Shown one piece after another: positions 5,604 through 40,959 of a DNA stretch of 45,399 nt. A program made the position numbers and the translations under genes. This DNA is from a virus. Numbering within the stretch: position 1 is the first letter of the stretch; every line of letters starts with the position of its first letter. The DNA is taken from positions 1-45,399 of the IMG/VR virus record IMGVR_UViG_3300046718_000391. One strand, given 5' to 3'. A model generated the notes under the pieces. That model was not told the DNA's origin, did no database searches, and saw nothing but the letters and a program-made list of their open reading frames with translations.

Positions 5604-6874
5604 GCAGTTGGGCACCCGCCCAGATGCTTGAGGGTTTGCTGCAATACTACAATCAGCAGGCCCAGAGCGGGCTCTCGAAACTTGGGAGCATGGCGGGCGG
5701 CGCAATCGGCGGGGGCATCGCCGGGATGGGCAACAGCGGCAAGATTGCCGATGCGAATATGGTGTCGCGTGGCGAGGTGGATCCAAGCATTCCCATGACG
5801 AACATCAGTCCGAGCCCGGTAGCGCCAGGTGCGCCGACTGGCTTATTCTCTGGCGCGTGGCAAGGACTCGCGGGGGAAGCTGGTGGCGAACAATACAAGC
5901 GCCTGATCCATGGCGGTAGAGCGGCTGACGCGTTCATGTCCTACATGGGTGATGAGGGTTTCAAATCGCTCAATATGTCACCCGAGCAATTCAAAACGCT
6001 TGGCGCTGAAGATAAAATGGGCGCAGTGAGCGGGCTCTTGCAGGGCACGGCTTACAAACAGGGTGCGCAAGACTACGCCATGAAGTTGCAGGCGCAGCAG
6101 CAGAATCTTGCGGCGATGAAACGCGCCAGCGACGAGGCTGACGCCATGCAAGGATTTGCGCGGGACCTCGCGAGCGCTGCTGCGCCAAGTGAGGCCGGGC
6201 CGGTGGACGCTACGGCACGGGGTGAGATTTCGCCGGATGTGCCGGTAACGAGCGGAACGAATCCACCTGCGGGAATGTCGCCCGAAATGGCTTTTGCAAA
6301 TGCGCTGCGGCGCAACCCGGGAGCGCTGGCAAGCCCGCAATTTGATAACTCGCTAAACGCAATCACGCGGATGCATAAGGGCACGGGCACTGACAGAACT
6401 GGAACGGTGACGCCATTGGGCAGCGGTAAAGGTTTTCTGTGGCTCTCGCCTTCGAGCGGCAAGGATATCGACATGAGCGCGAAGGGCGATGAAACGACGG
6501 TGGAGAATCCCGCAGCAAATGTAACGGTAGTAACACCGAAGGGCGGCAAGCCGCAGGTGCATTTCGACACCGAGAAGATGAGCCCGCTAACGCAGGGGAC
6601 TTATGACAACCTGCTGGCGCAGCATGCGGCGCTTACTTCGGAAATTGCAGACCTTAGCCTGAAAAATCCAAAAGAGAAGGTGGGGTATATACCATTCACC
6701 CAAACTTATGGCGGCCTGCTTGCGGAAAAGATGAAGAAGCAACAGCTGCTGCTACTCCAAATGGACGAGCTGAAGAAACAGGGCTCAATACAGCAGAAGC
6801 GCACGCCAGTAGCGACGACGCCGACGACCAAAACGGGGATTTGGGACCAGTATAACAAGTGGAAAAACCAATGA
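5576..6874 (+). CDS. Putative internal virion/ejection protein 2
   Basis: 432 aa, preceded by a clear Shine-Dalgarno (AAGGAGA about 8 bases before the ATG at 5576), one of the strongest in the window. The N-terminal third has a Gly/Ala-rich hydrophobic stretch (MAGGAIGGGIAGMG) of the sort that can insert into membranes. The middle is helical and Gln/Ala-rich, and the C-terminal part is Lys/Gln-rich (EKMKKQQLLLLQMDELKK, a possible coiled coil). It overlaps the upstream ejection gene by 28 bases and the giant gene by 4 (ATGA at 6871-6874). Position matches T7 gp15-like proteins, but sequence similarity is not evident by eye. Confidence 0.5.
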   Translation: MPGFGSTPVGSWAPAQMLEGLLQYYNQQAQSGLSKLGSMAGGAIGGGIAGMGNSGKIADANMVSRGEVDPSIPMTNISPSPVAPGAPTGLFSGAWQGLAGEAGGEQYKRLIHGGRAADAFMSYMGDEGFKSLNMSPEQFKTLGAEDKMGAVSGLLQGTAYKQGAQDYAMKLQAQQQNLAAMKRASDEADAMQGFARDLASAAAPSEAGPVDATARGEISPDVPVTSGTNPPAGMSPEMAFANALRRNPGALASPQFDNSLNAITRMHKGTGTDRTGTVTPLGSGKGFLWLSPSSGKDIDMSAKGDETTVENPAANVTVVTPKGGKPQVHFDTEKMSPLTQGTYDNLLAQHAALTSEIADLSLKNPKEKVGYIPFTQTYGGLLAEKMKKQQLLLLQMDELKKQGSIQQKRTPVATTPTTKTGIWDQYNKWKNQ

Positions 6875-9800
6875 GCCAAGTTCTCGATTTCTTCCGCGAA
6901 CAGGATGCCCGGCTCAAGGATGTTCCAGACGAGGACCTGACCAAGTTCATCGGTGAGAGTTACCCCGAGTTCCGCCAGGAGCCGGATTTCAACGCGCAGT
7001 ATTTCAAGGCCAGTGGGCAAGAGGCTGCCGTGAAAGCGGCAGTTGATGTGCCGCTGGATGCAATCAATCGGGTGGTGAAGGGGGCGCAGTTTGCCGAGGC
7101 AATTCGCGAGGCACCTTACCAAAACACGATTAGCCCGGCTGAGCCGGTGCCATGGACAACGCGACTGCTGCAATCCATTCGTGACAGTGCGCCGGTGCAA
7201 CTGTTCGCGGGACCGAGCCAGCAAACGAAGGATGCGGAATCAATCCTGTGGACGGACGTGCACGGCAATCAGGTGCCGATGTATCGGCCATTGGATAATA
7301 AACTGAATCAGGAAGGGATCATGGCCGGAATGAATAAGGCCTTCCCGCGACTGACGGCTGCGGATATCCAGACGGGAAATTGGAAAGCGTTCCTGCCGGG
7401 GGTGGACCCTGAAACTGGCAGGAGTGAATATTCAGTGGGCGAGCACCCGATTGATCCGCTGACGGATGAGGAAATAAAACCCAACACCCTTTCACAAATT
7501 GCGGCGGGCATCGAGCGCGGCAGTGCCGCTGCCGGTGAAGCTGTGGGCGGTTACGGGTGGCGCATGCCGCCGGGCATGCAAGGCGGGGGCCTGATTGGGC
7601 GCGGTGTGAACATGGCTTTCGCGGTGCAGATGGGGATGCATTTCCCCGACATGGTTAAACAGTTCAATGAAGCGCGGAAGAGCGGGGACGTGGGCAACGC
7701 GGTGGAAGCGCTGATTAACGGAGGCGTGACGGCCTACTTCACGGCGAAGTCTGCGCATGGCGCACTGGGCAAGCAGGCGGTGCCGCAATTCGACAATGAC
7801 GGCAATCCGCTGATGGACCCAACGACGGGGAAGCAGAAGGTTAATTACACGGGTGTTGCTGAGGAATCGCCATGGCTTAAGAATTTGCTCTCTGAGCAAC
7901 TGACCACGCAATACACACCGGACCAACTGAAGGATATTTTCCTGCGGGCACAACGGAAGGCGGCGGGCGAGCCGGTGGATATCTCGCCGGATGAATTGGA
8001 GATTGCGCGATTCATTACCTCGCAGGCTGAGCCACGGCAGGCAATCCGGCGCGGCGCGACGGTGAGCGAAAGCTACCCGAAAATTCAAAGCGAATTCTGG
8101 CGCAATTATCTTGGCCTGAAAGCAGGTGAGAAGGTGCTGACGCTTGGGCCGGAACTGGAACCGACGACGGAGACGGCGCAGCAGCAACCGGCAAGCAAGC
8201 CGATTGTGGAAAAGCCGAACGTGCGAGCGGGCAATCAGGGCAGGCTGTTGGGAATGCCTGAAGGAATGCAGGCAACGCCACCAGAGGAACCACCAGCACC
8301 ACCAGAGGAACCACCACCTGAAGAACCTCAACCACCAGCACCGCCAGAGGAACCGCCAACACCACCACCAGCGCCGAAGGAACGCGGCGCGGGAGATTTG
8401 GAGGGAATGACGGAGAGTGAGCTGGATGCGTTGATTAATGAGGCGCAGGGCGGGACAACGCCACCGGCACCGGCACCAACGCCAGCACCGGCACCGGCAC
8501 CGGAGCAAAGTGATTATCCACACAAAGAGCATGTGGACGTGCTCAATAAACCGGATGCGACGGATCATGAAGTGGCGCAAGCGCTCTTGGAACTGACGCA
8601 CGGAAAGGGCGAGGACTACATACCGAGCGCGCAAAACTTCAGCCGGATCGCTTTGGGGCGCTCGTTCGCGCCACACTTTGAACAGATGGCGCGGGCGGGC
8701 ATTTATCCAAACGCGCCAGTGATTCACAACGATAAGCTTTGGACGCTGCACAGTTTTGACATCGACCAGCGCAACACACAACTGCGGGCAAATCTGGAAG
8801 GCGCGGCGGGTGCGCTAAAACAGAACGTGAACCCACGCACACTCGAAGCGGCGAGGAACCTGAAGGACTTCCAAGCTGGCGATGTGGTGAGGGAATTCAG
8901 CTCAAGCGGGCCGGGCGCTCTTTATCGAGTGGTGGAACCTGACAAGCGCGGAATGGCGAAGCTCGAAAACGCGGAGACGGGCGCACTCAAAACAACGAAC
9001 GCTTACAGCAATCCTTACTACAAGCTGGCATCGAGGCCGACGCCGACAGCAGCACCGGCACCGGCACCGGCACCGGCACCGAAAGCGGAACGCAAAAATT
9101 ACGTGGTGACATTGAACTACCAATATCCCGCGCACGATGAGAAGGAGGGGATTCCGTTCGAGATTGAAGCAACGAGCAAAAGTGACGCGATAAGCAGAGC
9201 GCGGCGACAAGCTTATAATGACGGGCATTTGGTGGGCCACAAAGGGCATGTGAGCTTCAAGGCTGTGGAGGTGGATGAAGCTGGCGACGAGGTGGCACCA
9301 ACACCACCACCAAAGAAGCCGAGCATTAAGGAGGCGGGCAAAGAAGCGGCGGCAGGCCTGGACGAGTCGCTAAAGGGGCTGGAAGAGATTTTCGGCAAGG
9401 GCAAGCATGTTGGCAGCGGGCCGAGCTTCGACGAAAAGACTTACGAGAAGGCGCGGCCACATTTCCAGAGCGCTTATGACCACTACAAGAACGCGGGCAA
9501 AACGCTGAAGGATTTTCTGAAGTATTGCTTTGAGCGGTGGGGCAACGCGATTGCGCCTTACCTGAAAAGGTTCGTGCAGGACGTGCAGAACGCGGGCAAA
9601 GCGGCGGGAACCGTGGGGCGGCGCATTTCCGATTTCGTGAAGAGTGAATTGCTGACTGGCAATCCTGTGAGCCGGGCCGAAGTGCAGGTGCGCGGGCAGC
9701 AACTTGGCTTGACTGAGCGGCAGGCCGACGAGTGGGCCGAACTGGGCAGCACGGAGGCGGCGCGAAACATCGTGATGCAGGGAATGGATCCAATCTCCAC

Positions 9801-12800
9801 TTTCCGTGCGCTGGTGAATCTCTACGAGCGGATGCCGAAGAACGCGGCGCGGACGACGGAAACAAAAATCAATCAGCAGTATTCAACTCCCCCGCCACTG
9901 GCTTACGCGGGCTCAGTGCTGGCGGATTTTGCATCGGGCCGGGTGCTGGTGGAACCGACAATCGGGCACGGGATGCTAACGATTGCTGGTGCGCCTGGTG
10001 CTATCGTGGCGGGCAACGAATTGGACCCCGAACGGCTCGCCCGAGTGATGGAATATTTGCAGACGGCAGGCTTCGGCGATGCGCAGGTGGTGGCGACTGA
10101 CGCGACAAGCGAGGCATGGCAAACCACGCTGAAAGAGCTGGCGGATAAAATCCCGATTGACCGGATGGGGATGAATCCGCCTTTCGGTAACAAGCTCGAT
10201 GAGCAGGGAAACATCATCAAGTTTCCAATCCACGGCGCAGCGACGAAGGCCAAGGAAACGACGAGCATTGACATCGCGATTGCGCTGAACACGCTTCAGC
10301 ACTTGGCAAAGGATGGGAAAGCTTTCGTCATCATCGGGGCCAAAACTGGCTCGCCGGGGGTGATGTTTGGGAGTGACGCAGCACGGGCCGAGGCGTATCG
10401 CACGCCTGCGCTGCTGGAATTCTTCAAACGGTTTAAGGTTCTTGACTGGTTTACAGTGGGCGGGGACCTTTACCGGAAGATGGGCGCGGGCTGGCCGGTG
10501 GATATGATTATCATCGGCGGGAAGGGTGAAACGGATCCCTCAGCTCAAGGCGGCATGCTGCGGCCTTGGGTGAAAGCGCCGCGAGTGTTGGAGAGCTGGA
10601 ACGAACTGGAAGGATTAATAAATGAGCACACCGCAGGAAAGACTGGCACAGGCCCTAGCGGAGGAAGTGGTAAGGGAGGATCAGGAGGGGGGACAGGACC
10701 CCGAAAACCGGAAATTCCTGCTCCACGACCTGAACAGCCTACTGGCGGAAGTGGGGGCGGAAAACGCGGAGATAAAACCGGAACAACTGGACAACCCGGC
10801 ACACCTTCAAGCTTACCTAGCGGCGAGCCTGGACCCGCCAGTCCAAAATCTCCAAAAGGCACTCCCGAACAGACTGGCGGAGTGGGCGAAACAACCACCA
10901 CCGCGGGACCAGCTAAGCCGGATGGAGTGGGCGTCAAAGGGCCGGTGGTTACTGAGCCAAGCGGCGCTCAACCCGGAACAGGATTAAGCGAGTCGCTGCT
11001 CGTTCCATACGAGCCTGTCAGCAAGAACGTTGACCCGCATTTGATGGTGCCGCGCAATATCGCTTCGGCGATGCGTGAGGCGACGCTGGACCTCGAACGG
11101 GAAGTAGGCAAACCGGTTGATGATTACACAGCGGAGAAGATGGGCTGGACGGTGCCCGTGCTGCACCAGCGTTTGAGCGCGGCGCAGATTGACGCACTGG
11201 CTCTTGAGCTGCGGAATTTTGGGCGGGGCTCAGCGCTGATTAACACGGACGAAGGAGGCATCGGCAAGGGGCGCGTGGTGGCTGCGATGATTCAGTATAT
11301 CCGTGCGCAGGGAATGATCCCGATCTTCGTGACGGCGAAGAAGGGGCTTTACTCGGACATGGCTGGGCGCGATCTGCCGGCTGTGGGTGAACCTGACTTC
11401 AATCCGTTCATCACGGATAACGCGTATTACTACGAGGACGCGAAAGGCCGGGAGCACAAGGTCACGCGGCTCGCGAGTCAGGGCAACGAACTTTTCAGGC
11501 AGGTGGCGAAGAGCGGGACATTGCCAGCGGGGACGCATGGCATCTTCACAACTTATTCGCAGCTCACAAAGGACAGGCCCGAGAACTTCAAAGAAACTCC
11601 GAAGGCAAAATTCAAGCGCAAGAATAACCGGGGAGCGCTGCCGGATGGGCCGATGTGGCAAATGCTGCGGGCGATTGCGCCGCGTGCCTTCTTCATTCTG
11701 GATGAAGCGCACCTTGCAGCCGGGCCGGATAGTGAAATCAATCTACGCTTCGGCGGGCTGCTACCGCAGGCGGGCGGGATTTACTACAGCTCAGCGACGT
11801 TTGCAAAGAGGCCTGACAATCTTGGCCTGTATGCCATCGGGACGAGCATGCGCAACAGCGGGCTGAATAATGAGCAGCTCAAAGAAGTTTTGGAAAAGGG
11901 CGGGGTGCCGCTGCAACAAGCGCTCAGCTCGATGCTCGCCAGTAACGGCGAGCTGGTGCGCCGCCAGCATGACATGGCGGGCGTGAACGTGACTTTCAAG
12001 GCGACGGCAAAGGACACGGCAAGGGAAGTGCAGGCGGCAGATTCTTACACTGGATTCATTCGGGACCTGATGACGCTCTCGCGGCAAATCAATCAGGCCA
12101 CTGCCATAATGCAGGACGATGAGAATCAGGTAAGGCCGGAAGATTCGCAGGTGGCAATCGAACCGATCACGTTTGGTTCGCGGCTGTTCAACCTGAGCAA
12201 TCAATATCTGCTGGCGCTGCGAGCCGATGCCATTGTGCAGGAAGCTAAAGACGTGATAAAGCGCGGGCGCAAACCGTTCATCGCGCTTTATAACACGATG
12301 GAGGGACCGATTAAGGATTTGCAGGCCCGCAAGCTGCCGCTGACCTTCGGCGGCATTCTGCGGCGGGAAATGCAAAAGATGCTCACCATCACGGTGAATG
12401 ACCCGCAGGCCGAAGGTGGCAAGCGTGAGGTTGTGTTGACGCCAAAGGATCTGCCGGACGGCGGCGCGTTCTTTGGCCGGGTGGAAGCGCAGATTAACGC
12501 GACGGACTTCGGCGATATGCCGATTTCGCCAATTGACCATATCAAGTATGGACTGGCAGCAGCGGGTATTAAAACTGGTGAACTCACGGCGCGGGAAGGA
12601 GAAGTAGACGACACCGGTGAAGAGGTGGTGCTCAAGAAGCGCGAGAAGATGGAACGGAACAAGGTGTTGAAGGCTTACAACAATGGCGACACTGACGCAC
12701 TGATTGTGAACGGATCAGGCAGCACGGGCCTGAGCGCACACAACGCGCCAGCGGATAAAGCCAAGCGTGAGTTTCTGGACCAGAGGCCGCGCACAATGGT

Positions 12801-15800
12801 CGTGGGGCAACCGGCACCGGACATTAACGAGTTCATGCAAATGCTCTGGCGCATCAATCGCTTTGGGCAGCTCTCGAAACCTGAATACATCATCCTCGCA
12901 ACCGCCCTGGCGGCAGAGCGGCGCTTTGCCACGATGCTGCGCGGGAAGCTGGCGAGCTTGAACGCGAACACAACTGCCGACGCTGAAAGCGGCATGACGC
13001 AGGCGAAGGGATTCGCGGACGATATCTTCAACGAAGTGGGTGACCGGGTGGTGTGGCGCGTGATGCAGGCAAACGAGGATTTGAGCATGCTCATGGGCAT
13101 CGACACAACGGGCGATGAACCTGAGAACGCTGCTCGATGGGCAACCGGCAAGTTTGTGCTGCTGCCAAATACGGACGCACAGAATCTTTGGGACCAAATC
13201 ATAGCGGAGTTTCGCGACGAGATTGAGCAACTCAATGAAACCGGACAGAACCCGTTGAAAGCTTCAGCCGAGGACCTGCGGGCGAAAACGGTTTCGCGTG
13301 ATGAGCTGATGGCGGGCACGGGCAACACGCCTTTCGATAGTCCTGTGGTGGCTGAGAAATGCACGATTGTTCCACCGAACGCGGCACCGAAGCACGCTGA
13401 CGCCATGGCGTTAGCAGACCAGAACCGCCCACGGGTGCAAACTGAGGTGCGGGCATGGCTCGATGCGAGCCGGGTAGCGGAGGCCGAGCGCATCAAGACA
13501 TTGGAACAGCGCGGCGCGAAACAAGAGGCCATCGACAAGGCACGCGCCACGATGAGCGACTTGCGGGATAAGGTGACTGAAGCGCTGAATATGCACTTCG
13601 GCGAAACCTACGGGCTCAGCCTGAACTACGACCAAGAGGTAAACTTCATGGGGGCGGTGACAGACATAAAGCTGAAGGGCGCGAGTGTGTCAGACTTCAG
13701 CAGCCCGAGCCGCCAGCAACTCATCTTCACCACGAATACTTACCGCCGGAAGTTTACGGTGCCACTTTCCAAATTGGAGAAGCAGGCAGCGGGCACGCCG
13801 CTAACAATGCTCACCGGGACAGTTGGCCCCGAGGACTTCGACTCGCAGGCCGAGACGAGCACGGAGCGGTATATCGTGACGGGCAATTTACTGCGCGGCT
13901 TCGAGGCGGCGCGGCAGGCAACCAGCGGGATGGAGACAAAGCCGAGGGTGGCGATTTACACGCGCCACGATGGCAGTGTAAACACTGGCATCATCATGCC
14001 GCCCGGGTGGCAGCCGGGCGCGACGGGCGGGCCGGACAGCGGCGCACGCCGGATCCCGGTGAACACATGGCAGACGTTCCTTCAGAACGTGCGCAATGAT
14101 GTGCCGATGCGCAGCACACCAATCAGCACGGGGCATCCGGTGGAGATTTCGCACGGTCAAATGACGGTGCCCGCAACAGGCGCAGGCCGGGCGCTGTGGG
14201 CCGACCCGAGATACCGCAACTTCTTCGTGGACCCGCCCGAGCAACGCGGTGGAAACTTTCAGGGCTGGCTGCGCGGTGGCGATGAGCAGCTCTCAGGGCT
14301 GTTCAAATTTCTGAGCGACAAAGGTGTAAGGCTGATAGCGACGGAGAGCGAAGGGGGCAGCACCGTTAGCAACGGGGGTGTGATGAAAGCCCGGGGCATC
14401 TTCGTGAAGAATTTCCCGAAGAAGGGCGGCGCAGTGCCGGGCAATGTGGTGGTGAGCCTGGGCGGGATGCAGCACGTGCGTTCCATAGAAATGCCCGAGC
14501 TGGTGCGAATGGCTCGCGAGCTGACAACCGGGGGCATCGGGCTGAAGCGAATGAGCAAGGCTGCGGGAATGTTCATGGCGCACGGGAGCAGCACGCGCAT
14601 TGTTATCGATCCGCGCATGTTCAAAAACGATGTGGAAGCGGCGCAGGCCATGGCGCACGAAATTGGGCATGCGTATGACTTCCTCGATGACAAGACTCTC
14701 AACCGGGGAAACCTGCTTGGCCATTTGCAGGCGTTGCGGGCGCACATGCTGCGCACGCCGCTGGTAGCGGACCTGAAGAAAGAACTGTTGGACCTGACTG
14801 CGTATTGGCGGCCATATGATCCGCTGAAGGATCCCAAGAGCTACGTGCAATATCGGCAGTCGCCCGAAGAGCTTTACGCGGATGCGCTTTCGGTGCTGTT
14901 CAACTCACCGGGGCTCTTGCAGGAAAAGGCGCCGACGTTCTACAAGGCGTTCTTTAACTCGCTTGATGCGAGGCCGAAGGCGAAGGCGGCACTGTTCGCT
15001 GTTTGGGAATTGCTGCATCAAGGTCAACTCACCGTGCTGGAACATCGGGGCGACGAGATTAAAGCCATGTTCGGCAAAGGTGATGAAATCTTTAAGCAGA
15101 AATGGGAGCTGCGAAAGGCGGCAGCAAATTCTTGGGATGGCTGGTGGACGCAGCTTAAGCAGCAACTCTTGTGGCGATGGGAACCGCTGGCAACGAAGCT
15201 GCCGGATTTAATTCCGCTGATGGAAGAGCACGCGCTCACTGACAACATCAACGCCCGGTTTGTGCGGCTGATGCATAAGAACGTGCTCAAGCCGGTGGAA
15301 GATTCGGGCATGACGCAAGATGACTTGGGCGCAATGCTGTTTCTGGAACGCGTGGCAGCAGGGGACATGGACGTGGTGAAGGCGCTGGAGAATGACCCTG
15401 ATATGGTGGCGGCGCTTGGCCGGGCTGGAATTGCGAACCCTCTGGGCCAAACGCCGACGACTGCCAAACAGCAGCTCCTTAAAATGAATCTGGATCTGCG
15501 CCTGGACAAGATGACGATTCTGCGCGATGCGGTGCGAATCTTTCACGACATGGTTTTCAAAGTGACAACGGAGGCGGTGAACGTGGGCGCTTACAGCCGG
15601 GAATCACTCCGCAATGTGATTATCCCGAACAGGAATAATTACGCTGCCTTCGGTGTGCTCGATTACCTCGAAGCGTATGTGCCCGCAGGACTGCGCCGCC
15701 AGAAGGGCACGCTCAAGGAAATTGGAAATCCGTGGATGGTGACAATACTGAAGATGGTGGCGCTGAATAACCTGATTGCTTTGCAGCGGGTGCGCAACGC

Positions 15801-17556
15801 GGGGCGTGATGGACTGGTGGCGCATTTCCCAAATGAAATTGAGCGGGTGAAGGTGCCGGTGATTGGCAAGAGTCTGAGCGGTGGTGTCATCTATGCCGAG
15901 CCGAAGGCTAAAGAGGGAAGAGGCCTGATGACGGTGCTGGAAAATGGCAAGCCGGTTTACTACCAAGTTGATCCCTACATCGCGAAGGCCTTCGAGCGGG
16001 CGGACCCGAACCATTTAAGCAAAGCGCTGAAGGTTCTGGATTGGACTTACCGCAAACTGATGTATCCGCTGCAAATCACATATTCAGTGGGGTTTCAATT
16101 CTTCACGAATCCGAAGCGGGATTTTGATCGCACGTGGAAGAACATGCCCGCGAACATCAAGCGCGGGTATCAGCGCATGGCAATCTTGCGCGAGTATGTG
16201 CGGACTTACAAAGATGCCTTGGCGCGGATCAAGGGCAACGAAAGCGGGCTGAATGAGGAAATGTTAGCCAACTTCGCCGTGGGTATTCCGTGGGAAACTT
16301 TGGGCGGGATGGAACGTGACGATTTCTTTGGCGAAGTGATGAAGCGCTACAAACTGCTGCCTGAGAATGAACGCAATCGGTTTTGGGATTCAAGGGTGCT
16401 CAGCCCGGTGCGAGCTGTGGCTGAGTTCATTAAGGCGCGAGGTGCCATGAATGAGGCGGCGGCAAAGTTTGCGGCCTACTCGTTCCTGCGCCGAGCTGGA
16501 TGGACGCCAAAGCAAACGGCTTATCACGTGCGCAACTACGCGGGCACGCCGAACGTTTACAAGCGGGGGCTCATGTTCCGAACGATTCGAGCGGTGCTGC
16601 CCTTTTACAATATGTTCTTGCAGGGGTTTCGTTCCGACTTCCAACGCATGAAGCCGGGCAGCGGATCCGGCTGGTGGTTTAAGTGGGCCATGACGGATGG
16701 GCTCTCATCGGTCATCGCGGGTCTTGCTGCTGCCGGTATCCTGGGCGAGACGTTGCGCGAGCTGTTCGGGCGCGTGAGTGAATATGATCGGAGCACGTAT
16801 AACATCATTCCACTTGGCTTTAAGGACGGTGGCGATTTCGGGAAAAAGACGGTTTACCTGCGGGTGCCGCGTGCGGAAGATTCGCGACTCATCAGCGGAC
16901 TGGTTTACAAAACAACGCGATTGGCCGCAGGCGATAACCCGGGGCAGTGGGGCCAGCTCTTGGACTTCGGCGCGGGCCAGATGCCGACCCTGAATCCGTT
17001 GCTGACGATACCCGCGAATTGGGGCGTTGCCATGGCGGGCGGCAATCCACATGACCCACTGCGCGGCAAAGAAATTATTCCGCATCGGGAATACAGCGCT
17101 GGTGGTCTGAACGAATTGGGACCGATGTTTCATTGGACCTTGGACCAGAGTGGACTCAACAACTGGATCTCATGGAACCCGCACGCCGAGACAACATTTG
17201 AATTTGGCTTCAGTGCAATCCCGGGGCTGAACCGGATGATCAAGATTAGTGATTACGGGGAGAGGGAAGATCAGCGGGCGGATACTGCGGGCAAGCAAAG
17301 CGAGCGCGATGCTTTGTTCTTGAAGCTGCCGAAGGATGTTCAAAGCGCAGTGGCCGAGCGCGACAATTTGGCGAAGGTGAAGAACCTGCCCAGCGCCACC
17401 GAGGAACAGAAGAACCGATACAACCAACTCAACGTTTGGTATCAACACGTGTTCTCGCCGGACTGGCGAACCACGCGGGATGCAATGTCCAAAGGACAGG
17501 ACGTTTCCGGCAAGATGCAGGCCTTGGAGCAGGGAACCGCAGGCGTGAAAAGATAA
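6871..17556 (+). CDS. Giant polyvalent ejection-type protein: adenine MTase, SNO-type helicase, zincin, LPD38-like
   Basis: 3561 aa from the ATG at 6871, which overlaps the previous stop. Domains in order: an N-terminal region of about 450 residues of unknown fold; Pro/Glu linkers (about 470-505) and Pro/Ala linkers; an N6-adenine methyltransferase with YSTPPPLAY (1004), VEPTIGHGM (1027) and NPPFG (1102); a Gly/Thr/Pro linker (about 1252-1370) that overlaps a nested reading frame; a superfamily 2 helicase of Strawberry-notch type with NTDEGGIGKGR (lysine 1466), LDEAH (1611) and QMLWRINRFGQ (1990); a zincin with HEIGH (2596) and a downstream SPEELYADALS glutamate; then a helical region with FTNPKRDFDRTW (about 3080) and PFYNMFLQGF (3244), matching the LPD38 domain of large polyvalent proteins; then a hydrophobic segment. 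P1 DarB combines methyltransferase and helicase domains, is packaged and protects injected DNA from restriction. Placement after ejection genes suggests the same here. Domain calls are strong; function is inferred. Confidence 0.85.
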   Translation: MSQVLDFFREQDARLKDVPDEDLTKFIGESYPEFRQEPDFNAQYFKASGQEAAVKAAVDVPLDAINRVVKGAQFAEAIREAPYQNTISPAEPVPWTTRLLQSIRDSAPVQLFAGPSQQTKDAESILWTDVHGNQVPMYRPLDNKLNQEGIMAGMNKAFPRLTAADIQTGNWKAFLPGVDPETGRSEYSVGEHPIDPLTDEEIKPNTLSQIAAGIERGSAAAGEAVGGYGWRMPPGMQGGGLIGRGVNMAFAVQMGMHFPDMVKQFNEARKSGDVGNAVEALINGGVTAYFTAKSAHGALGKQAVPQFDNDGNPLMDPTTGKQKVNYTGVAEESPWLKNLLSEQLTTQYTPDQLKDIFLRAQRKAAGEPVDISPDELEIARFITSQAEPRQAIRRGATVSESYPKIQSEFWRNYLGLKAGEKVLTLGPELEPTTETAQQQPASKPIVEKPNVRAGNQGRLLGMPEGMQATPPEEPPAPPEEPPPEEPQPPAPPEEPPTPPPAPKERGAGDLEGMTESELDALINEAQGGTTPPAPAPTPAPAPAPEQSDYPHKEHVDVLNKPDATDHEVAQALLELTHGKGEDYIPSAQNFSRIALGRSFAPHFEQMARAGIYPNAPVIHNDKLWTLHSFDIDQRNTQLRANLEGAAGALKQNVNPRTLEAARNLKDFQAGDVVREFSSSGPGALYRVVEPDKRGMAKLENAETGALKTTNAYSNPYYKLASRPTPTAAPAPAPAPAPKAERKNYVVTLNYQYPAHDEKEGIPFEIEATSKSDAISRARRQAYNDGHLVGHKGHVSFKAVEVDEAGDEVAPTPPPKKPSIKEAGKEAAAGLDESLKGLEEIFGKGKHVGSGPSFDEKTYEKARPHFQSAYDHYKNAGKTLKDFLKYCFERWGNAIAPYLKRFVQDVQNAGKAAGTVGRRISDFVKSELLTGNPVSRAEVQVRGQQLGLTERQADEWAELGSTEAARNIVMQGMDPISTFRALVNLYERMPKNAARTTETKINQQYSTPPPLAYAGSVLADFASGRVLVEPTIGHGMLTIAGAPGAIVAGNELDPERLARVMEYLQTAGFGDAQVVATDATSEAWQTTLKELADKIPIDRMGMNPPFGNKLDEQGNIIKFPIHGAATKAKETTSIDIAIALNTLQHLAKDGKAFVIIGAKTGSPGVMFGSDAARAEAYRTPALLEFFKRFKVLDWFTVGGDLYRKMGAGWPVDMIIIGGKGETDPSAQGGMLRPWVKAPRVLESWNELEGLINEHTAGKTGTGPSGGSGKGGSGGGTGPRKPEIPAPRPEQPTGGSGGGKRGDKTGTTGQPGTPSSLPSGEPGPASPKSPKGTPEQTGGVGETTTTAGPAKPDGVGVKGPVVTEPSGAQPGTGLSESLLVPYEPVSKNVDPHLMVPRNIASAMREATLDLEREVGKPVDDYTAEKMGWTVPVLHQRLSAAQIDALALELRNFGRGSALINTDEGGIGKGRVVAAMIQYIRAQGMIPIFVTAKKGLYSDMAGRDLPAVGEPDFNPFITDNAYYYEDAKGREHKVTRLASQGNELFRQVAKSGTLPAGTHGIFTTYSQLTKDRPENFKETPKAKFKRKNNRGALPDGPMWQMLRAIAPRAFFILDEAHLAAGPDSEINLRFGGLLPQAGGIYYSSATFAKRPDNLGLYAIGTSMRNSGLNNEQLKEVLEKGGVPLQQALSSMLASNGELVRRQHDMAGVNVTFKATAKDTAREVQAADSYTGFIRDLMTLSRQINQATAIMQDDENQVRPEDSQVAIEPITFGSRLFNLSNQYLLALRADAIVQEAKDVIKRGRKPFIALYNTMEGPIKDLQARKLPLTFGGILRREMQKMLTITVNDPQAEGGKREVVLTPKDLPDGGAFFGRVEAQINATDFGDMPISPIDHIKYGLAAAGIKTGELTAREGEVDDTGEEVVLKKREKMERNKVLKAYNNGDTDALIVNGSGSTGLSAHNAPADKAKREFLDQRPRTMVVGQPAPDINEFMQMLWRINRFGQLSKPEYIILATALAAERRFATMLRGKLASLNANTTADAESGMTQAKGFADDIFNEVGDRVVWRVMQANEDLSMLMGIDTTGDEPENAARWATGKFVLLPNTDAQNLWDQIIAEFRDEIEQLNETGQNPLKASAEDLRAKTVSRDELMAGTGNTPFDSPVVAEKCTIVPPNAAPKHADAMALADQNRPRVQTEVRAWLDASRVAEAERIKTLEQRGAKQEAIDKARATMSDLRDKVTEALNMHFGETYGLSLNYDQEVNFMGAVTDIKLKGASVSDFSSPSRQQLIFTTNTYRRKFTVPLSKLEKQAAGTPLTMLTGTVGPEDFDSQAETSTERYIVTGNLLRGFEAARQATSGMETKPRVAIYTRHDGSVNTGIIMPPGWQPGATGGPDSGARRIPVNTWQTFLQNVRNDVPMRSTPISTGHPVEISHGQMTVPATGAGRALWADPRYRNFFVDPPEQRGGNFQGWLRGGDEQLSGLFKFLSDKGVRLIATESEGGSTVSNGGVMKARGIFVKNFPKKGGAVPGNVVVSLGGMQHVRSIEMPELVRMARELTTGGIGLKRMSKAAGMFMAHGSSTRIVIDPRMFKNDVEAAQAMAHEIGHAYDFLDDKTLNRGNLLGHLQALRAHMLRTPLVADLKKELLDLTAYWRPYDPLKDPKSYVQYRQSPEELYADALSVLFNSPGLLQEKAPTFYKAFFNSLDARPKAKAALFAVWELLHQGQLTVLEHRGDEIKAMFGKGDEIFKQKWELRKAAANSWDGWWTQLKQQLLWRWEPLATKLPDLIPLMEEHALTDNINARFVRLMHKNVLKPVEDSGMTQDDLGAMLFLERVAAGDMDVVKALENDPDMVAALGRAGIANPLGQTPTTAKQQLLKMNLDLRLDKMTILRDAVRIFHDMVFKVTTEAVNVGAYSRESLRNVIIPNRNNYAAFGVLDYLEAYVPAGLRRQKGTLKEIGNPWMVTILKMVALNNLIALQRVRNAGRDGLVAHFPNEIERVKVPVIGKSLSGGVIYAEPKAKEGRGLMTVLENGKPVYYQVDPYIAKAFERADPNHLSKALKVLDWTYRKLMYPLQITYSVGFQFFTNPKRDFDRTWKNMPANIKRGYQRMAILREYVRTYKDALARIKGNESGLNEEMLANFAVGIPWETLGGMERDDFFGEVMKRYKLLPENERNRFWDSRVLSPVRAVAEFIKARGAMNEAAAKFAAYSFLRRAGWTPKQTAYHVRNYAGTPNVYKRGLMFRTIRAVLPFYNMFLQGFRSDFQRMKPGSGSGWWFKWAMTDGLSSVIAGLAAAGILGETLRELFGRVSEYDRSTYNIIPLGFKDGGDFGKKTVYLRVPRAEDSRLISGLVYKTTRLAAGDNPGQWGQLLDFGAGQMPTLNPLLTIPANWGVAMAGGNPHDPLRGKEIIPHREYSAGGLNELGPMFHWTLDQSGLNNWISWNPHAETTFEFGFSAIPGLNRMIKISDYGEREDQRADTAGKQSERDALFLKLPKDVQSAVAERDNLAKVKNLPSATEEQKNRYNQLNVWYQHVFSPDWRTTRDAMSKGQDVSGKMQALEQGTAGVKR
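10622..10987 (+). CDS. Nested 121-aa gene overprinted on the linker of the giant gene
   Basis: An ORF of 121 codons plus stop lies wholly inside the giant gene in another frame. It has its own Shine-Dalgarno (GGAAGGA at 10608-10614, 7 bases before the ATG). The product looks like a normal soluble helical protein (starts MSTPQERLAQALAEEVV, contains FLLHDLNSLLAEVG and NRLAEWAKQPP, ends LNPEQD) with balanced composition and codons such as CTG, GCG and GAA, like other genes here. In contrast the giant frame over the same bases is low-complexity Gly/Thr/Pro/Ser with many A- or T-ending codons (GGA, ACA, CCT), unlike the rest of that gene. This suggests the nested frame carries real coding constraint, and perhaps is older than the linker. 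No family recognised; expression is unproven. Confidence 0.6.
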   Translation: MSTPQERLAQALAEEVVREDQEGGQDPENRKFLLHDLNSLLAEVGAENAEIKPEQLDNPAHLQAYLAASLDPPVQNLQKALPNRLAEWAKQPPPRDQLSRMEWASKGRWLLSQAALNPEQD

Positions 17557-18427: not shown

Positions 18428-18489
18428 AGTGGCACCCAGAGTGGCACCCATAACAAAAGTGGCACCCGCAACTGAAAATAGTGGCACCC
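18428..18489 (+). repeat. Right arm-type repeats of attP (4 copies)
   Basis: Four direct copies of AGTGGCACCC at 18428-18437, 18440-18449, 18458-18467 and 18480-18489 (spacings 12, 18, 22). They sit between the tRNA-derived core and the integrase ATG, so integrase binding here could also repress its own gene. The frame of the integrase is open through them, giving a VAP-repeat extension that I do not consider translated. Confidence 0.65.
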
Positions 18490-18503
18490 GTAAAAGAAAA
18501 AAT

Positions 18504-19751
18504 ATGACGACAAACGCAGCAGCAGCAACAACCGTAGAGAACATCATCGAACTGGCGCAGCCGGAAGCGAAGGACCCGAATAAGCATGACTTCAGTTTCG
18601 AGGGGCGCGACTTCAGCCTTTACAAGAAGTATCCCGGGCGCGAGGGGCAGTGGTATATTCGCGTGCAGATTGAGGGCAAGCGGGTGCCAAAATGCCTTGA
18701 GACAAATCACGCCGAGACGGCAGAGAAAAACGCCAAGAAGCACATTGCTTTGCTGAAGGCCGGCAAGTGGCAAGATCTGGAAGCGATGAAACAGCGCAGG
18801 CAAATATCCACGTGGGGCGACGTGATGAAATTGTATCTGCCCGATCCCGATGAGAAGAAGGGTTGGCCCGGCTTGCATGGAGTGGATCCGCGCACGGCAA
18901 AGAACAACGCGTGGGCCATGGGCAAAATCCTGAAGGATGTGCTCCGCCTGGACGACGCGACAAATGTGCCGCTGAGCAAGTTCGATGATTTGCTGTGCGT
19001 GGCGTTTCAAGATTCGCTGGTGAAGAAGAAGCTGGCCGACGCGGACAAGGATAAGGACTCGCAGAAGTGGGCGCGGGCGCAGGCTGAGAATTCCAGCAAG
19101 TCGATCATCCTTCAGGCTCGCAGCATCTTTAACAAGGGGCGGTTGATGGTGCAGCAGTATGAAAAGCACGGGCTGATTATCCCGCCATGCATCGAGAAGT
19201 TTCTTGAGGCGAAGCTGAACGGGAAGGACCAGCAACGGGCCATGTATCTGCGGCCTGCGGATCACGTCATTAAAAAGACCTTCGAGGAAATCGAAAAGCT
19301 GCGGGACACTGACCGCGAAGTTTACCTGCTGTTCTGGCTCGCGTGCGGGTGCGGCCTGCGCCGTGGCGAGGCGCTGCGCTCACGATGGGAATACTTCGTG
19401 ACGCGTGACGGCAAGCCGTGGTTCGATGGCGGTGTGGGCAAGGATGGCGAACATATCAAGGTGCCGGTGCAAGACCGCGCATGGGCGGCGCTGGAACCGG
19501 TGAAGAAGGAAAACGGTCCCGTCATTGAGAGTGAGAGCCTTGAAGCTGTGCGGCGCGTGGGGTTCTGGCTGGATATGCAGGGCTGGAAAACGGAAAAGAA
19601 AATGCATGAGCTGCGGGCCTACATCGGCAGTCTGATTTATCAGGTTGACCACATGGCAGCGATGAAGTTTATGCGCCACAAGAGCATCAAGGTGACGGAG
19701 AAATTCTACGTGCGGTATGGCGGCAAGGCCATTCCAACAAACGTGCTCTAA
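18504..19751 (+). CDS. int: Tyrosine-type site-specific integrase
   Basis: 415 aa from the ATG at 18504. The frame continues upstream to a GTG at 18429, but that extension is the arm repeats. The C-terminal catalytic domain shows GLRRGE (arginine 286), HELR (H368, R371), MRHKSI (H392) and KFY with the likely nucleophile Y402. The N-terminal 60-100 residues (YKKYPGREGQWYIRVQIEGKR) look like an arm-binding beta domain, followed by a helical core-binding domain. It integrates and, with a directionality factor, excises the phage at the tRNA-derived attP just upstream. Leader sequence is A-rich without a good Shine-Dalgarno. It ends 22 bp before a strong bidirectional terminator. Confidence 0.95.
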   Translation: MTTNAAAATTVENIIELAQPEAKDPNKHDFSFEGRDFSLYKKYPGREGQWYIRVQIEGKRVPKCLETNHAETAEKNAKKHIALLKAGKWQDLEAMKQRRQISTWGDVMKLYLPDPDEKKGWPGLHGVDPRTAKNNAWAMGKILKDVLRLDDATNVPLSKFDDLLCVAFQDSLVKKKLADADKDKDSQKWARAQAENSSKSIILQARSIFNKGRLMVQQYEKHGLIIPPCIEKFLEAKLNGKDQQRAMYLRPADHVIKKTFEEIEKLRDTDREVYLLFWLACGCGLRRGEALRSRWEYFVTRDGKPWFDGGVGKDGEHIKVPVQDRAWAALEPVKKENGPVIESESLEAVRRVGFWLDMQGWKTEKKMHELRAYIGSLIYQVDHMAAMKFMRHKSIKVTEKFYVRYGGKAIPTNVL

Positions 19752-27109: not shown

Positions 27110-28007
27110 CTCCTTCTGGTCTGATGAGGGGGTAGGGGCGCTGCCACCGGATCAGAAGCTCGCGGTGGCGTGGGTTTTGACCAGCAAGGACACAAACAAC
27201 CTTGGTTATCTGAAGGTGCAAAAACGGCAATTCGAGTTTGATACCAATCTCCCATTGATGGCCCTTGAAGGGGCATTGATGGGGCTACCAAGGACCTTCC
27301 TTTCCAAGCGCGATGAGCAGGGGCTGCGGGTGCTGGCGCTGTCTTACATTCATTACCAGTTCTCGGATGCGGCAACAAATCCTAACAACCGCTTGCAGAG
27401 CAACTTAGTGAAGCTGCTCTTGGAATCAGACGATTGGGTTCAAGCCGCCATACTAGGGAGATACAAGGGGCTTGTATCCCCCTTCCTAGTGGCTAAGGGG
27501 GATGCATCCTCCTTCAAGGGACCAGAACAGAACAGAACAGAGAAGAGCAGCGCAGATCTGCACAGATCAGTACAACCGGGGGGTGCAGGGGGGGCTGCGT
27601 GGGCCGAGGTGCCGACCGATGCGGATGTATTCGCCTTCTGTGAGAAGTGGACGGGAGAGCCTGCCAGTGGAGCGCCGCTTATTCCAAAAAAATTCGCCGA
27701 AAAATGGATCGCCCGAATGGCCGGGCGGCAAATGTGGCCAGCGAGCTGGGAGCGCAAGTTGATTGCGGACTGGCGGGCCGAGTTCTCTGCGTGGGGCAAG
27801 ACCAATGGCGCAGCACCACCGGCGCGGACGCTGCTCGACAAAAAAACGCGGCTGGAAGCGCTGAGGCGGCAGATTGCCAATCACCCGGGCAATCCTGAAG
27901 GCAACTGCGGGTTCATGGGTGACCCCGGGGCCGAGGACATTTTCGAGTTTGAAGCGCTCCTGAAAGAAAAGGCGGTGCTGGAAAAGGAGATAGCTGGCAA
28001 TGGCTAG
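27084..28007 (+). CDS. Replication initiator, lambda O-like layout
   Basis: 307 aa from the ATG at 27084. Residues 1-110 form a winged-helix domain of the replication-initiator type (KIHSSFWSDEGVGALPPDQ, then VLTSKDTNNLGYLKV). Residues about 130-175 are a low-complexity linker whose DNA is full of palindromes, and the C-terminal part (VFAFCEKWTGEP, then FAEKWIARM, WPASWERKL) is a helical domain that would recruit the helicase. It overlaps the DnaB gene by 8 bases. By analogy to lambda O, it would bind the internal origin and load DnaB. The assignment rests on domain pattern and gene order. Confidence 0.65.
   Translation: MSLATKIHSSFWSDEGVGALPPDQKLAVAWVLTSKDTNNLGYLKVQKRQFEFDTNLPLMALEGALMGLPRTFLSKRDEQGLRVLALSYIHYQFSDAATNPNNRLQSNLVKLLLESDDWVQAAILGRYKGLVSPFLVAKGDASSFKGPEQNRTEKSSADLHRSVQPGGAGGAAWAEVPTDADVFAFCEKWTGEPASGAPLIPKKFAEKWIARMAGRQMWPASWERKLIADWRAEFSAWGKTNGAAPPARTLLDKKTRLEALRRQIANHPGNPEGNCGFMGDPGAEDIFEFEALLKEKAVLEKEIAGNG
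27450..27570. other. Candidate replication origin inside the initiator gene
   Basis: Dense dyads: GATACAAG/CTTGTATC at 27460-27478 with 3-base loop, extended outward by ACTAGG (27452) and CCTAGT (27485); ATCCCCCTT/AAGGGGGAT at 27476-27484 and 27495-27503; the palindrome GGATGCATCC at 27500-27509; and three tandem AGAAC units at 27524-27538. Three related 12-mers (TGTATCCCCCTT, its near-copy inverted, and TGCATCCTCCTT) look like iterons. The stretch encodes only a low-complexity linker, as in lambda O, whose gene contains the origin. Function is inferred. Confidence 0.45.
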
Positions 28008-29574
28008 GAAGAAGAAAGACGAAGGCGAATTCCTGCCAGCTCTGCCGCCACACGCGCCGGACGCCGAACGCGGGTGCCTGGGCTGTTGCTTCCTGAGCGT
28101 GGATTGCATCGGCGATATCCGCGAGGCCTTGCCGGATGATGCCGCCTTTTGGGACCTGCGGCACCGCGTGATTTGGCAGCACTTGCAGAAGGCCTACGAC
28201 GAAAAAAAATCCGCTGACATTGTGCTGGTAATGGAATCTCTGCGGGCCAGCGGAGAACTGGACCAAGTAGGCGGGCTGGCATTCCTCACAACGCTGCCCG
28301 ATAACGTGCCGAGCGCTCACAACCTGCCGAGCTACCTCGACGTGGTGAAGGAGCGCTGGCAAATGCGGCGCATGATATCGGCTTGTGCGCAGACGGTTAG
28401 TGAGCTGATGGACTCGGACCAAACCAAGTCAGTTGGCGATTTACTGGCGGGCGGGGAATCGCGGGTGCAAGCGGCGGGCGAGCTGCGGGTGACGGCCAAC
28501 GAACAGACCATGAAAATGGTGGTGTGTGACGTGGCGGCAAACGTCCTTGAAAAATTCGAGCGCGGAAAAAAGTTCAGGATAGGACCGCAGACCGGGTTCA
28601 ACTACGTGGATAACATTCTGCCGGGGCTCGCGCCGGGCCAGCTCATCGTGATAGCGGCGAGGCCGCGCACCGGCAAGAGCGCCTTCATCATGCAGACGGC
28701 GGAACATATCGCGCTCGTGGAAAAAGAACCGGTGGCAATTTTCAGTTTGGAAATGACCTCGCGCAGCTTGGGCTTGCGCCAAATCTTCCAAAAGGCCGGC
28801 GCGGACCTCACCAAGTTCCTGAATGGCTTTCTGCTGGAAGCGGACGTGAATAGGTTAACCCTCGCGGCGGCGACTCTAGCACAGGCCCCGATCATCATCG
28901 ACGAGAGCCCGCGAATCAGCCTTGAGGATTTGGAGGTAAGAGCGCGGCGGATGAAGCGGAAGTATGGGACGAAGGTTTTCTTCGTGGATTATTTCCAGCT
29001 CATGTTCTGCCGCAACTCTAAGCAGCAGTGGAGTAAGAGCGATGAGCTGGCTTACATCAGCATGCGGCTAAAGGCTCTGGCTAAGGAATTGGAGGTGCCC
29101 ATTGTGCTGTGCGCCCAGATGAACCGGCAGATTGAACAGGACTTCAACCGCAGGCCGCGTCTGGCGGACCTGAAGGATACGGGCCAGCTCGAACAGGATG
29201 CCGATGTGGTGGCGTTCCTATGGAAAGCGCCTATCGACATGAGCAACGATAAGCAGCGGGCGAGGATACAGGAGATTTTAGCGCACCTATCGAGCGTGCC
29301 CGCCGACTGGCGCAAGCTCGACGAGCTGAGCGACGAGGGCAAGCCGTGGAAGCATTACCTGACCATCGTAACGTGCACAATTGAGAAGCAACGCGAGGGG
29401 CGCAGCGGAGAAGATGCTGCGATGGTGTTGATTCGGCCATGGGTGCGTTTCGTGGACGCGTACACCCCGCCAAGACCACCGAAGGAAAAGAAAGAAGCGC
29501 AGGCCGAAGAAAATTTGCCGTCCAGCCAGGACGGCCAAGAAGAACAACAACAACAACAAGAAGAGCTGATGTGA
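28000..29574 (+). CDS. dnaB: Replicative DNA helicase, DnaB family
   Basis: 524 aa. The N-terminal DnaB domain begins with the PHAPDAERGCLGCCFLS pattern and spans about residues 15-115; the C-terminal RecA-like domain has Walker A RPRTGKS (lysine 226), SLEMTSRSL (arginine-loop region), Walker B VFFVDYFQL (aspartate 330) and QMNRQIEQ followed by RPRLADLKDTGQLEQDAD, all hallmarks. It unwinds DNA at the phage fork as a hexamer. The C-terminus is extended by a Pro/Glu/Gln tail including a run of six glutamines. The start overlaps the initiator gene, and its stop overlaps the GTG of the RyR gene. Confident. Confidence 0.95.
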   Translation: MARKKKDEGEFLPALPPHAPDAERGCLGCCFLSVDCIGDIREALPDDAAFWDLRHRVIWQHLQKAYDEKKSADIVLVMESLRASGELDQVGGLAFLTTLPDNVPSAHNLPSYLDVVKERWQMRRMISACAQTVSELMDSDQTKSVGDLLAGGESRVQAAGELRVTANEQTMKMVVCDVAANVLEKFERGKKFRIGPQTGFNYVDNILPGLAPGQLIVIAARPRTGKSAFIMQTAEHIALVEKEPVAIFSLEMTSRSLGLRQIFQKAGADLTKFLNGFLLEADVNRLTLAAATLAQAPIIIDESPRISLEDLEVRARRMKRKYGTKVFFVDYFQLMFCRNSKQQWSKSDELAYISMRLKALAKELEVPIVLCAQMNRQIEQDFNRRPRLADLKDTGQLEQDADVVAFLWKAPIDMSNDKQRARIQEILAHLSSVPADWRKLDELSDEGKPWKHYLTIVTCTIEKQREGRSGEDAAMVLIRPWVRFVDAYTPPRPPKEKKEAQAEENLPSSQDGQEEQQQQQEELM

Positions 29575-39954: not shown

Positions 39955-40959
39955 ATGCTTACTTATGAAAATGTAGTTGGTAACCAAGAGGATTGGGCCA
40001 ATTACATCACCAACGTTGACATGCGGCAGACGCCATTTCTGGAATGGCTGACCGTGGGCGATAAGCCCGTAAATGTCATCTACAACTATCAGGCCGAGGC
40101 CTACGCTCCGCCCGAAGATAACAGCCATGTGGACGGCAAGCCCTGGACGGCATTCAAGAGCGCTCAGGAAGGTGTGGGCCAGCTCAAAGCGCTGGTGCAG
40201 TGGTTCGATAAGACCACTTCGATCAGCAAGCTCACACAGGACGTGACCAACAATGCGGCGCTGCCGGATTTGCTGGCGCACGATATCACCAAGCGGCTAA
40301 AGGAAATGTCCCGCGACATGGAAGCGGCGTTTCTGGATGACAACGACGGGCGCGAGGATAACAAGGTGGTGGGTTACAAATCCCGAGCCTTGGGTAGTTG
40401 GATTAACAACTCAGCGCAGGCGCTTTACCCGGTGCCAACGCCGTTTCTGACGCCGACATCGAACATTGACGCGACGGCCAGCGGCTCACTCACTGAAGAT
40501 ATTGTCCGCAACATCCTTGAAGGCATTGGCCGCACCAGCGGTAACAAAGAACCCATCACCCTGTTCTGCGGGCCGAAACTGAAACGGAAGTTTGCTGACT
40601 TCCAATTCTACGTCCCGAACCAAGCGGCAACCGGCACGTCTGGCGTGGTAGCCCGCATGGTGGACAACAAGGCGGATGACCGGAGCGTGACCTTGGCGGT
40701 GGATCAGTATCACGGGGATTATGGCCCGGTGGATATCATGATCGACTGGTTCTTAGTGGCGCTAACCGGAACGACGGTGGTGCAGAACTTTCGCGGGTAT
40801 TTCGTGCATCGCCCGATGTGGGAACTCCGGTGGAACCAAAAGCCGAAGGTCTATCGGCCTGAATTCAAGGGCGGCTCTTACGAGGCCGCGATGGATGCCA
40901 TTCTGATGCTGGTTTGCAAGAACCCGGCAGCGGAAGGCAAATATGCGCCGACGACCTAA
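39955..40959 (+). CDS. Major capsid protein, SU10/DUF5309-like
   Basis: 334 aa, preceded by a good ribosome-binding site (GGAG 8 bases before the ATG). The N-terminus (MLTYENVVGNQEDWANYITN, then QTPFLEWLTVGDK) and the central DITKRLKEMSRDMEAAFLDD match the SU10-type HK97-fold capsid family. The remaining parts (KLKRKFADFQFYVPN, and VDIMIDWFLVALTGTTVVQN) are consistent with the P- and A-domains. There is no large cleaved delta domain. It assembles the icosahedral shell. Strong by position and pattern. Confidence 0.85.
   Translation: MLTYENVVGNQEDWANYITNVDMRQTPFLEWLTVGDKPVNVIYNYQAEAYAPPEDNSHVDGKPWTAFKSAQEGVGQLKALVQWFDKTTSISKLTQDVTNNAALPDLLAHDITKRLKEMSRDMEAAFLDDNDGREDNKVVGYKSRALGSWINNSAQALYPVPTPFLTPTSNIDATASGSLTEDIVRNILEGIGRTSGNKEPITLFCGPKLKRKFADFQFYVPNQAATGTSGVVARMVDNKADDRSVTLAVDQYHGDYGPVDIMIDWFLVALTGTTVVQNFRGYFVHRPMWELRWNQKPKVYRPEFKGGSYEAAMDAILMLVCKNPAAEGKYAPTT

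What the first reader, a model, noticed from the sequence alone, without database searches (positions are those of the whole stretch)
10622..10987. A complete 121-codon gene appears to be overprinted inside the giant polyvalent gene
The nested frame has an ATG, a good Shine-Dalgarno (GGAAGGA, 7 bases upstream), a stop and a product with normal soluble-protein composition. The giant frame over the same bases is low-complexity Gly/Thr/Pro/Ser and uses A/T-ending codons that are unusual in the rest of the gene. It lies exactly between the methyltransferase and helicase domains, so one explanation is that an independent small gene between two genes was swallowed when they fused, leaving its reverse-reading frame as a linker. 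A dual-coding gene in an ejected antirestriction-type protein would be new to me.
Basis: partly seen in the sequence, partly recalled or inferred. Interest (0 to 1): 0.85.

Follow-up and report, generated by a model that had tools for sequence, protein, structure and literature searches.

The report
Hidden gene inside a phage giant gene
A 121-residue protein gene is written in a second reading frame inside a giant phage DNA-protection gene; the same hidden gene sits at the same spot in about a hundred distinct phage and plasmid relatives, so it is real, widespread and almost never annotated, though what the protein does is unknown.

Summary
The nested ORF 10622-10987 is exactly where reported: same strand, +1 frame, ATG, AAGGA 7 nt upstream, TAA. 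Alone it is not significant: with the giant's residues fixed and codons permuted, the +1 frame stays open in 10% of shuffles.

Relatives settle it. In about 127 distinct MTase-linker-helicase loci from phages and cyanobacterial/alphaproteobacterial plasmids, a +1 ORF of about 90-170 codons fills the linker while the giant frame also stays open. The ATG lies most often exactly 14 nt after the MTase homology, often behind AAGGAG. In 29 sequence-disjoint pairs the linker's substitution pattern is rotated (27:1, p=2e-7), so the nested frame is the more constrained one. Nested products form folded families: AlphaFold pLDDT 84 for the window's, 92 for a larger clade's. A free-standing homologue of the larger clade exists in Coleofasciculus.

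Best explanation: a conserved overprinted gene, translated by internal initiation from the mRNA of a strawberry-notch-type, DarB-like methylase-helicase protein, giving a small, fast-evolving accessory protein. Function is inferred. The 'swallowed between two fusing genes' origin is not supported: the outgroup is fused and lacks the ORF, and split-gene relatives lack it too. No known protein or fold family matches.

The parts
6859..17556 (+). Giant polyvalent ORF (3565 aa; GTG start as listed): N-terminal regions, N6-adenine MTase, linker, strawberry-notch-type helicase, long C-terminal region
9727..10608 (+). Adenine MTase domain of the giant (NPPF motif, conserved in all six aligned relatives)
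   Evidence: alignment A3
10608..10614 (+). GGAAGGA: Shine-Dalgarno-like site for the nested gene, at the end of the MTase-homologous codons
   Evidence: sequence; AAGGAG-type site 7 nt before ATG recurs in many relatives
10622..10987 (+). Nested (overprinted) gene, 121 codons plus TAA, +1 frame of the giant; predicted all-helical acidic protein (13.6 kDa, pI 4.7)
10609..11001 (+). Inter-domain linker of the giant protein (Gly/Thr/Pro/Ser-rich), the giant-frame reading of the overlapped DNA
11002..13074 (+). Strawberry-notch-type NTPase/helicase domains (AAA_34 and Helicase_C_4)
   Evidence: Pfam matches above cut-off; alignment A1

Best explanation
10622-10987 is a genuine protein-coding gene overprinted in the +1 frame inside the linker of a methylase-helicase polyvalent gene. 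Ribosomes most likely start on it independently, at an internal ATG behind a Shine-Dalgarno site at the end of the MTase coding region, so one mRNA yields both the giant protein and a small soluble protein. The nested frame is the more constrained one; the giant frame only has to stay open and so reads as a flexible Gly/Pro/Ser/Thr linker. Functionally (inferred): the product is a small, fast-evolving accessory protein of the methylase-helicase module, for example a partner that helps to target, package, regulate or give specificity to the injected DNA-protection protein. Shown: conservation, constraint, start position, predicted fold, one free-standing homologue of a related clade. Inferred: actual translation, physical partnership, role.
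For: Conserved +1 ORF in the same linker in about 127 distinct loci and in cyanobacterial and alphaproteobacterial genomes and plasmids. ATG exactly 14 nt after the MTase homology in 33 of 90 non-redundant loci, most often with AAGGAG 7 nt upstream. Both frames held open: 146 stops expected in the nested and 149 in the giant frame by codon permutation, 0 observed. Substitution rates in the linker rotated in 27 of 28 informative sequence-disjoint pairs, p=2e-7, while the MTase of all 29 pairs is normal; nested residues differ less than giant residues, 0.39 vs 0.50. Nested changes 0.59 of the giant-only expectation, with 32 nested stops expected and none seen. ORF-free control 78% vs 0-11% zero-stop. 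AlphaFold2: window product pLDDT 83.7, pTM 0.75; larger clade 91.8, 0.85. Profile searches with the nested family in 386 cyanobacterial genomes hit 9 places in 7 genomes, every one nested in the same frame of the same giant gene. Cyanobacterial and phage nested families are homologous (hhalign 6.7e-15). Free-standing homologue in Coleofasciculus (hhalign 2e-7).
Against: No expression data. A strong SD is not kept in all members of the window's own clade: clear in the window and L098, weak or absent in L093-L096. The window's subfamily is not linked to the larger clade by sequence profile (hhalign E 0.013 and 0.26); their equivalence rests on position, frame and start site. For some loci the chosen start is uncertain. 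No function can be tested here.
Confidence: 0.87

Rival explanations
1. Chance ORF: the +1 frame is open only because the giant's linker is Gly/Pro/Ser/Thr-rich and so contains few codons that make +1 stops.
For: In the window alone 10% of synonymous permutations leave the frame open; other long alternative-frame ORFs exist in this gene.
Against: Across 90 non-redundant loci 146 stops expected, 0 seen (ORFs were picked as open stretches, but the ORF-free control agrees); rotated substitution pattern; conserved start site; folded families with high-confidence models; free-standing homologue.
Confidence: 0.03
2. The nested frame is reached by programmed +1 frameshifting from the MTase, giving a truncated MTase-nested fusion, rather than by independent initiation.
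For: The nested ORF follows the MTase immediately and in some loci the open +1 stretch begins upstream of the ATG. Some members of the window's clade lack a clear SD.
Against: ATG conserved at a fixed position, most often with AAGGAG 7 nt upstream. In the window no in-frame +1 stretch extends above the ATG. No shared slippery motif was noticed, though none was searched for systematically.
Confidence: 0.08
3. The nested ORF is a mobile hidden element, like the out-of-frame HNH homing endonuclease of the ShiLan insertion in phage methylases, that invaded the linker and spreads selfishly.
For: Same general anatomy: an ORF hidden out of frame in a phage methylase gene without breaking it (PMC11855218).
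Against: No endonuclease, nuclease or other family match; conserved at one site across deeply diverged lineages; no sporadic presence in close relatives; an SD site is present in many, whereas none was detected for ShiLan.
Confidence: 0.03
4. The nested gene is real but its product acts independently of the giant, for example as an anti-defence protein that merely shares the mRNA.
For: It diverges more than the MTase in 41 of 51 pairs, as arms-race proteins do; acidic, median pI 4.6; one free-standing homologue about 4 kb from a giant gene.
Against: Found almost only inside this gene in genome-wide searches, which suggests linkage to the module; median charge of about -6 per 100 aa is only moderately acidic (the comparison with Ocr-like DNA mimics is from memory).
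Confidence: 0.3

Closest known systems
DNA methylase-helicase dyad of polyvalent proteins (Iyer et al. 2017, PMC5512222), archetype phage P1 DarB; here the strawberry-notch helicase type
   Same: The host gene: adenine MTase with NPPF fused to an SF2/SNF2-type ATPase in a giant phage protein, with strawberry-notch domains matched in Pfam
   Different: The terms 'overlapping', 'overprint' and 'linker' do not occur in that paper; P1 darB has no nested homologue recognised here, only R/S-rich chance frames
ShiLan domain: hidden HNH endonuclease out of frame in an actinophage methylase (PMC11855218)
   Same: Complete ORF hidden in another frame of a phage DNA-methylase gene whose own frame stays open
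   Different: ShiLan is a homing HNH element that the authors describe as actively homing, with a GTG start and no detectable RBS; ours is a resident, non-HNH gene family with ATG and often an SD, conserved across phages and plasmids
Fully embedded phage genes such as lambda Rz1 in Rz and phiX174 E in D (from memory)
   Same: Small protein translated from an alternative frame wholly inside a larger gene
   Different: Unrelated sequence and, as far as known, function; here the embedded frame is the better conserved one and the host frame is a linker
P1 Ulx, small protein encoded next to darB, listed as aiding DarB localisation (PMC9024508)
   Same: Possible functional analogue: small accessory protein of the methylase-helicase protein
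   Different: Separate gene; no profile similarity (hhalign E 0.56 and 0.76)

Membership tests
Overprinted (embedded overlapping) protein-coding gene | Alternative frame conserved open across homologues beyond expectation | tested here: met
Overprinted (embedded overlapping) protein-coding gene | Purifying selection on the nested frame | tested here: met
   rotated position rates p=2e-7; nested changes 0.59 of expected
Overprinted (embedded overlapping) protein-coding gene | Own translation start signals | tested here: met
   conserved ATG at +14 and AAGGAG-type SD in the larger clade; SD uneven in the window's clade
Overprinted (embedded overlapping) protein-coding gene | Product made in cells | not testable with these tools
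   no expression or proteomic data
DarB-like methylase-helicase polyvalent protein (host gene) | Adenine MTase with NPP(F/Y) fused to SF2/SNF2-type helicase | tested here: met
DarB-like methylase-helicase polyvalent protein (host gene) | N-terminal LPD36 domain | not tested
   no model for LPD36 was used
DarB-like methylase-helicase polyvalent protein (host gene) | Packaged in the virion and ejected; antirestriction activity | not testable with these tools
   only the precedent of P1 DarB (PMC5512222, PMC9024508)
ShiLan-type hidden HNH homing endonuclease | HNH/zinc-finger endonuclease product | tested here: not met
   no Pfam, PHROG, NCBIfam or PDB match
P1 Ulx family | Sequence-profile similarity to Ulx | tested here: not met
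Large nested family (profiles A6/A8/A10) | Profile similarity of the window's nested subfamily to the larger clade | tested here: inconclusive
   hhalign E 0.013 and 0.26; same position, frame and start site

The most novel reading that the evidence does not exclude
In a whole class of methylase-helicase polyvalent proteins of phages and plasmids the inter-domain linker is the shadow of a second gene: a previously unnamed protein family, with no detected relative of known structure, is overprinted there, gained once in an already fused gene, kept across widely diverged phages and plasmids, and translated from the same mRNA as an obligate, fast-evolving partner of the injected DNA-protection machine.
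Probability: 0.55. Interest if true: 0.88.

Novelty: new variant of a known kind. Interest (0 to 1): 0.82.

Why it matters
Fully embedded genes are known one by one in model phages. A conserved, folded and widespread one inside a major class of antirestriction polyvalent proteins was not found in the literature searched and is missed by standard annotation; where it was called (Gloeobacter pGMOR1), the MTase part of the giant has no listed gene. It means the methylase-helicase system probably has an unrecognised small component, gives a clear experimental target, shows that 'low-complexity linkers' in giant phage proteins can hide genes, and offers a natural set of about 100 loci for studying how two frames co-evolve.

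Tried and rejected
Direct tblastn of the nested product against phages and of the related nested proteins against phages and plasmids: no hits, because the family diverges fast and cultured phages with this gene are nearly absent; solved by fetching relatives through the MTase and helicase domains. Pfam, PHROGs, NCBIfam, PADLOC, PDB sequence and Foldseek PDB/BFVD searches gave no credible match. Judging the ORF by its length or GC-position shift alone was rejected as insufficient. An automatic longest-ORF choice missed the nested gene in L181, L183 and L187; direct reading at the MTase end showed it there, so the 'none' label of L181 and L183 in the tree is an error. Coupled re-initiation of the helicase at the nested stop: an ATG overlapping the stop occurs in only 2 of 90 loci, so not general. 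P1 Ulx homology rejected.

Full report
Observation. The window holds a giant ORF at 6859-17556 (3565 aa) with Helicase_C_4 and AAA_34 domains above Pfam cut-off and an upstream adenine MTase with NPPF. Between them, in the +1 frame on the same strand, lies 10622-10987: ATG, 121 codons, TAA, with GGAAGGA ending 7 nt before the ATG. GC by codon position is rotated over this stretch: giant frame [.67.74.39], nested frame [.74.40.68], rest of the giant [.62.44.69]. By itself this is not proof. Permuting synonymous codons of the giant frame leaves the +1 frame open in 10% of cases, other alternative-frame ORFs of 109-159 codons exist in the gene, and another low-complexity linker near 8209 shows part of the same GC shift.

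Relatives. Nested-protein searches found nothing at first, so relatives were fetched through the neighbouring domains: tblastn in phages and plasmids, then degenerate scans of viral contigs and one scan of bacterial genomes. MTase and helicase lie in one open frame in nearly all. In almost every one a +1 ORF fills the linker, and the +2 frame is mostly shorter or closed. The closest relatives (L093-L098; MTase 48-58%, helicase 55-65% identical) all have it with ATG starts. Cyanobacterial plasmids and contigs (L004-L006 and most of L173-L194), the alphaproteobacterial L007, L178, L187 and L188, and Bacteroides phage BS-TP4 (L002) have it as well.

Start site. Measured from the end of the MTase homology, the ATG is at +14 in 33 of 90 non-redundant loci, the commonest position by far; the consensus upstream is an A/G-rich AAGGAG-type Shine-Dalgarno ending about 7 nt before the ATG. 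The window shares the +14 position and AAGGA. Within its own clade only the window and L098 have a clear SD, while L093-L096 do not.

Constraint. Three tests agree. (1) In 90 non-redundant loci, codon permutation predicts 146 stops in the nested frame and 149 in the giant frame; none occurs in either. Both frames are kept open. The nested ORFs were chosen as open stretches, so repeats the test without choosing: the first 90 codons of the linker are stop-free in +1 in 78% of loci and never in +2, against 0-11% in +1 for MTase and helicase segments. (2) In 29 pairs sharing no sequence, substitutions in the MTase are faster at giant position 3 than position 1 in 29 of 29; in the linker giant position 1 (nested position 3) exceeds giant position 3 (nested position 2) in 27 of 28 informative pairs (p=2e-7), and nested residues differ less than giant residues (0.39 vs 0.50). 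The pairs share no sequence but are not fully independent phylogenetically. (3) Under a giant-only null the nested product should have changed 1.7 times more than it did, and 32 nested stops should have appeared. The nested frame is thus the better conserved one, and the giant linker's Gly/Ala/Pro/Arg/Ser composition is what an out-of-frame reading of it would give (interpretation).

The product. The window's product is predicted all-helical with pLDDT 83.7 and pTM 0.75 from 12 sequences. The larger clade gives 91.8 and 0.85, a small mixed fold that keeps a similar run of helices. Neither has a PDB match, nor the larger clade's a BFVD match, and no sequence library matches credibly. Phage and cyanobacterial nested families are homologous (hhalign 6.7e-15); the Bacteroides group is marginal (7e-4); the window's subfamily is not detectably linked. 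A genome-wide profile search of 386 cyanobacterial genomes found 9 places in 7 genomes, all nested in the same frame of the same kind of giant gene. One free-standing homologue exists in Coleofasciculus LEGE 07092, about 4 kb from a giant gene with its own nested copy.

Origin. In a tree of MTase plus helicase the Dar-like outgroup (L003, L008-L012) is fused and lacks a credible nested gene; its linkers are mostly shorter, though L010's is 603 nt. The other 114 rows nearly all have the gene, with losses concentrated in an AT-rich subclade that includes split genes. Gain in an already fused gene, by insertion or overprinting, therefore fits better than trapping during fusion, but the root is uncertain, and 'none' for L181 and L183 in that tree is my labelling error.

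Function. Iyer et al. (PMC5512222) describe the methylase-helicase dyad as an injected DNA-protection module and do not mention overlaps. P1 DarB has small helpers such as Ulx, listed as aiding DarB localisation (PMC9024508); Ulx is not homologous here. The nested protein's near-universal linkage to this gene suggests a partner of the module; its faster divergence than the MTase (41 of 51 pairs) suggests contact with something variable. I commit to 'accessory protein of the module made by internal initiation', with existence close to certain and role plausible but untested.

Comparison. The nearest published analogue is the hidden HNH endonuclease in actinophage methylases (PMC11855218). It differs in product, site and mobility. 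Embedded phage genes as a kind are known; this family was not found in the papers searched. Only an open-access library was searched, so prior description elsewhere cannot be excluded.

Noticed in passing
L208:5158-5676 (minus strand), Coleofasciculus sp. LEGE 07092: Free-standing homologue of the nested family in its own gene, about 4 kb from a giant gene that also carries a nested copy.
   Followed up: partly
L005 (Gloeobacter morelensis plasmid pGMOR1) 3001-5700: The record lists the nested gene (WP_230844304.1) and a helicase starting at an ATG that overlaps its stop; no gene is listed for the MTase part of the same open frame.
   Followed up: partly
L099-L110, L111, L123, L143: About 400 to 1400 extra bases lie between the nested stop and the helicase homology, so some giants have a further segment there.
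   Followed up: no
L047, L052, L048, L063 (AT-rich viral contigs); also L020, L021: MTase and helicase are split into separate ORFs (the first four) or joined by a short linker (L020, L021), and no related small gene lies between them.
   Followed up: partly
L077 and L081, 4609-4917: A giant ORF whose MTase is not recognised by the window's MTase still carries a +1 ORF of 103 codons before the helicase, so the nested gene may extend to more distant relatives.
   Followed up: no
window 8059-8500: P/E-rich linker with a partial shift of GC by codon position but no plus-strand ORF of 100 aa or more: a warning that GC rotation alone is not diagnostic.
   Followed up: partly
window 18429-19751, 28000-29574, 31331-33040, 39955-40959: Integrase, DnaB-like helicase, terminase large subunit and major head protein: the window is a tailed, probably temperate phage.
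   Followed up: partly
pairs such as L141/L092 and L034/L030: Nested and MTase divergence disagree strongly in both directions, which hints at recombination of the nested/linker segment between phages.
   Followed up: no
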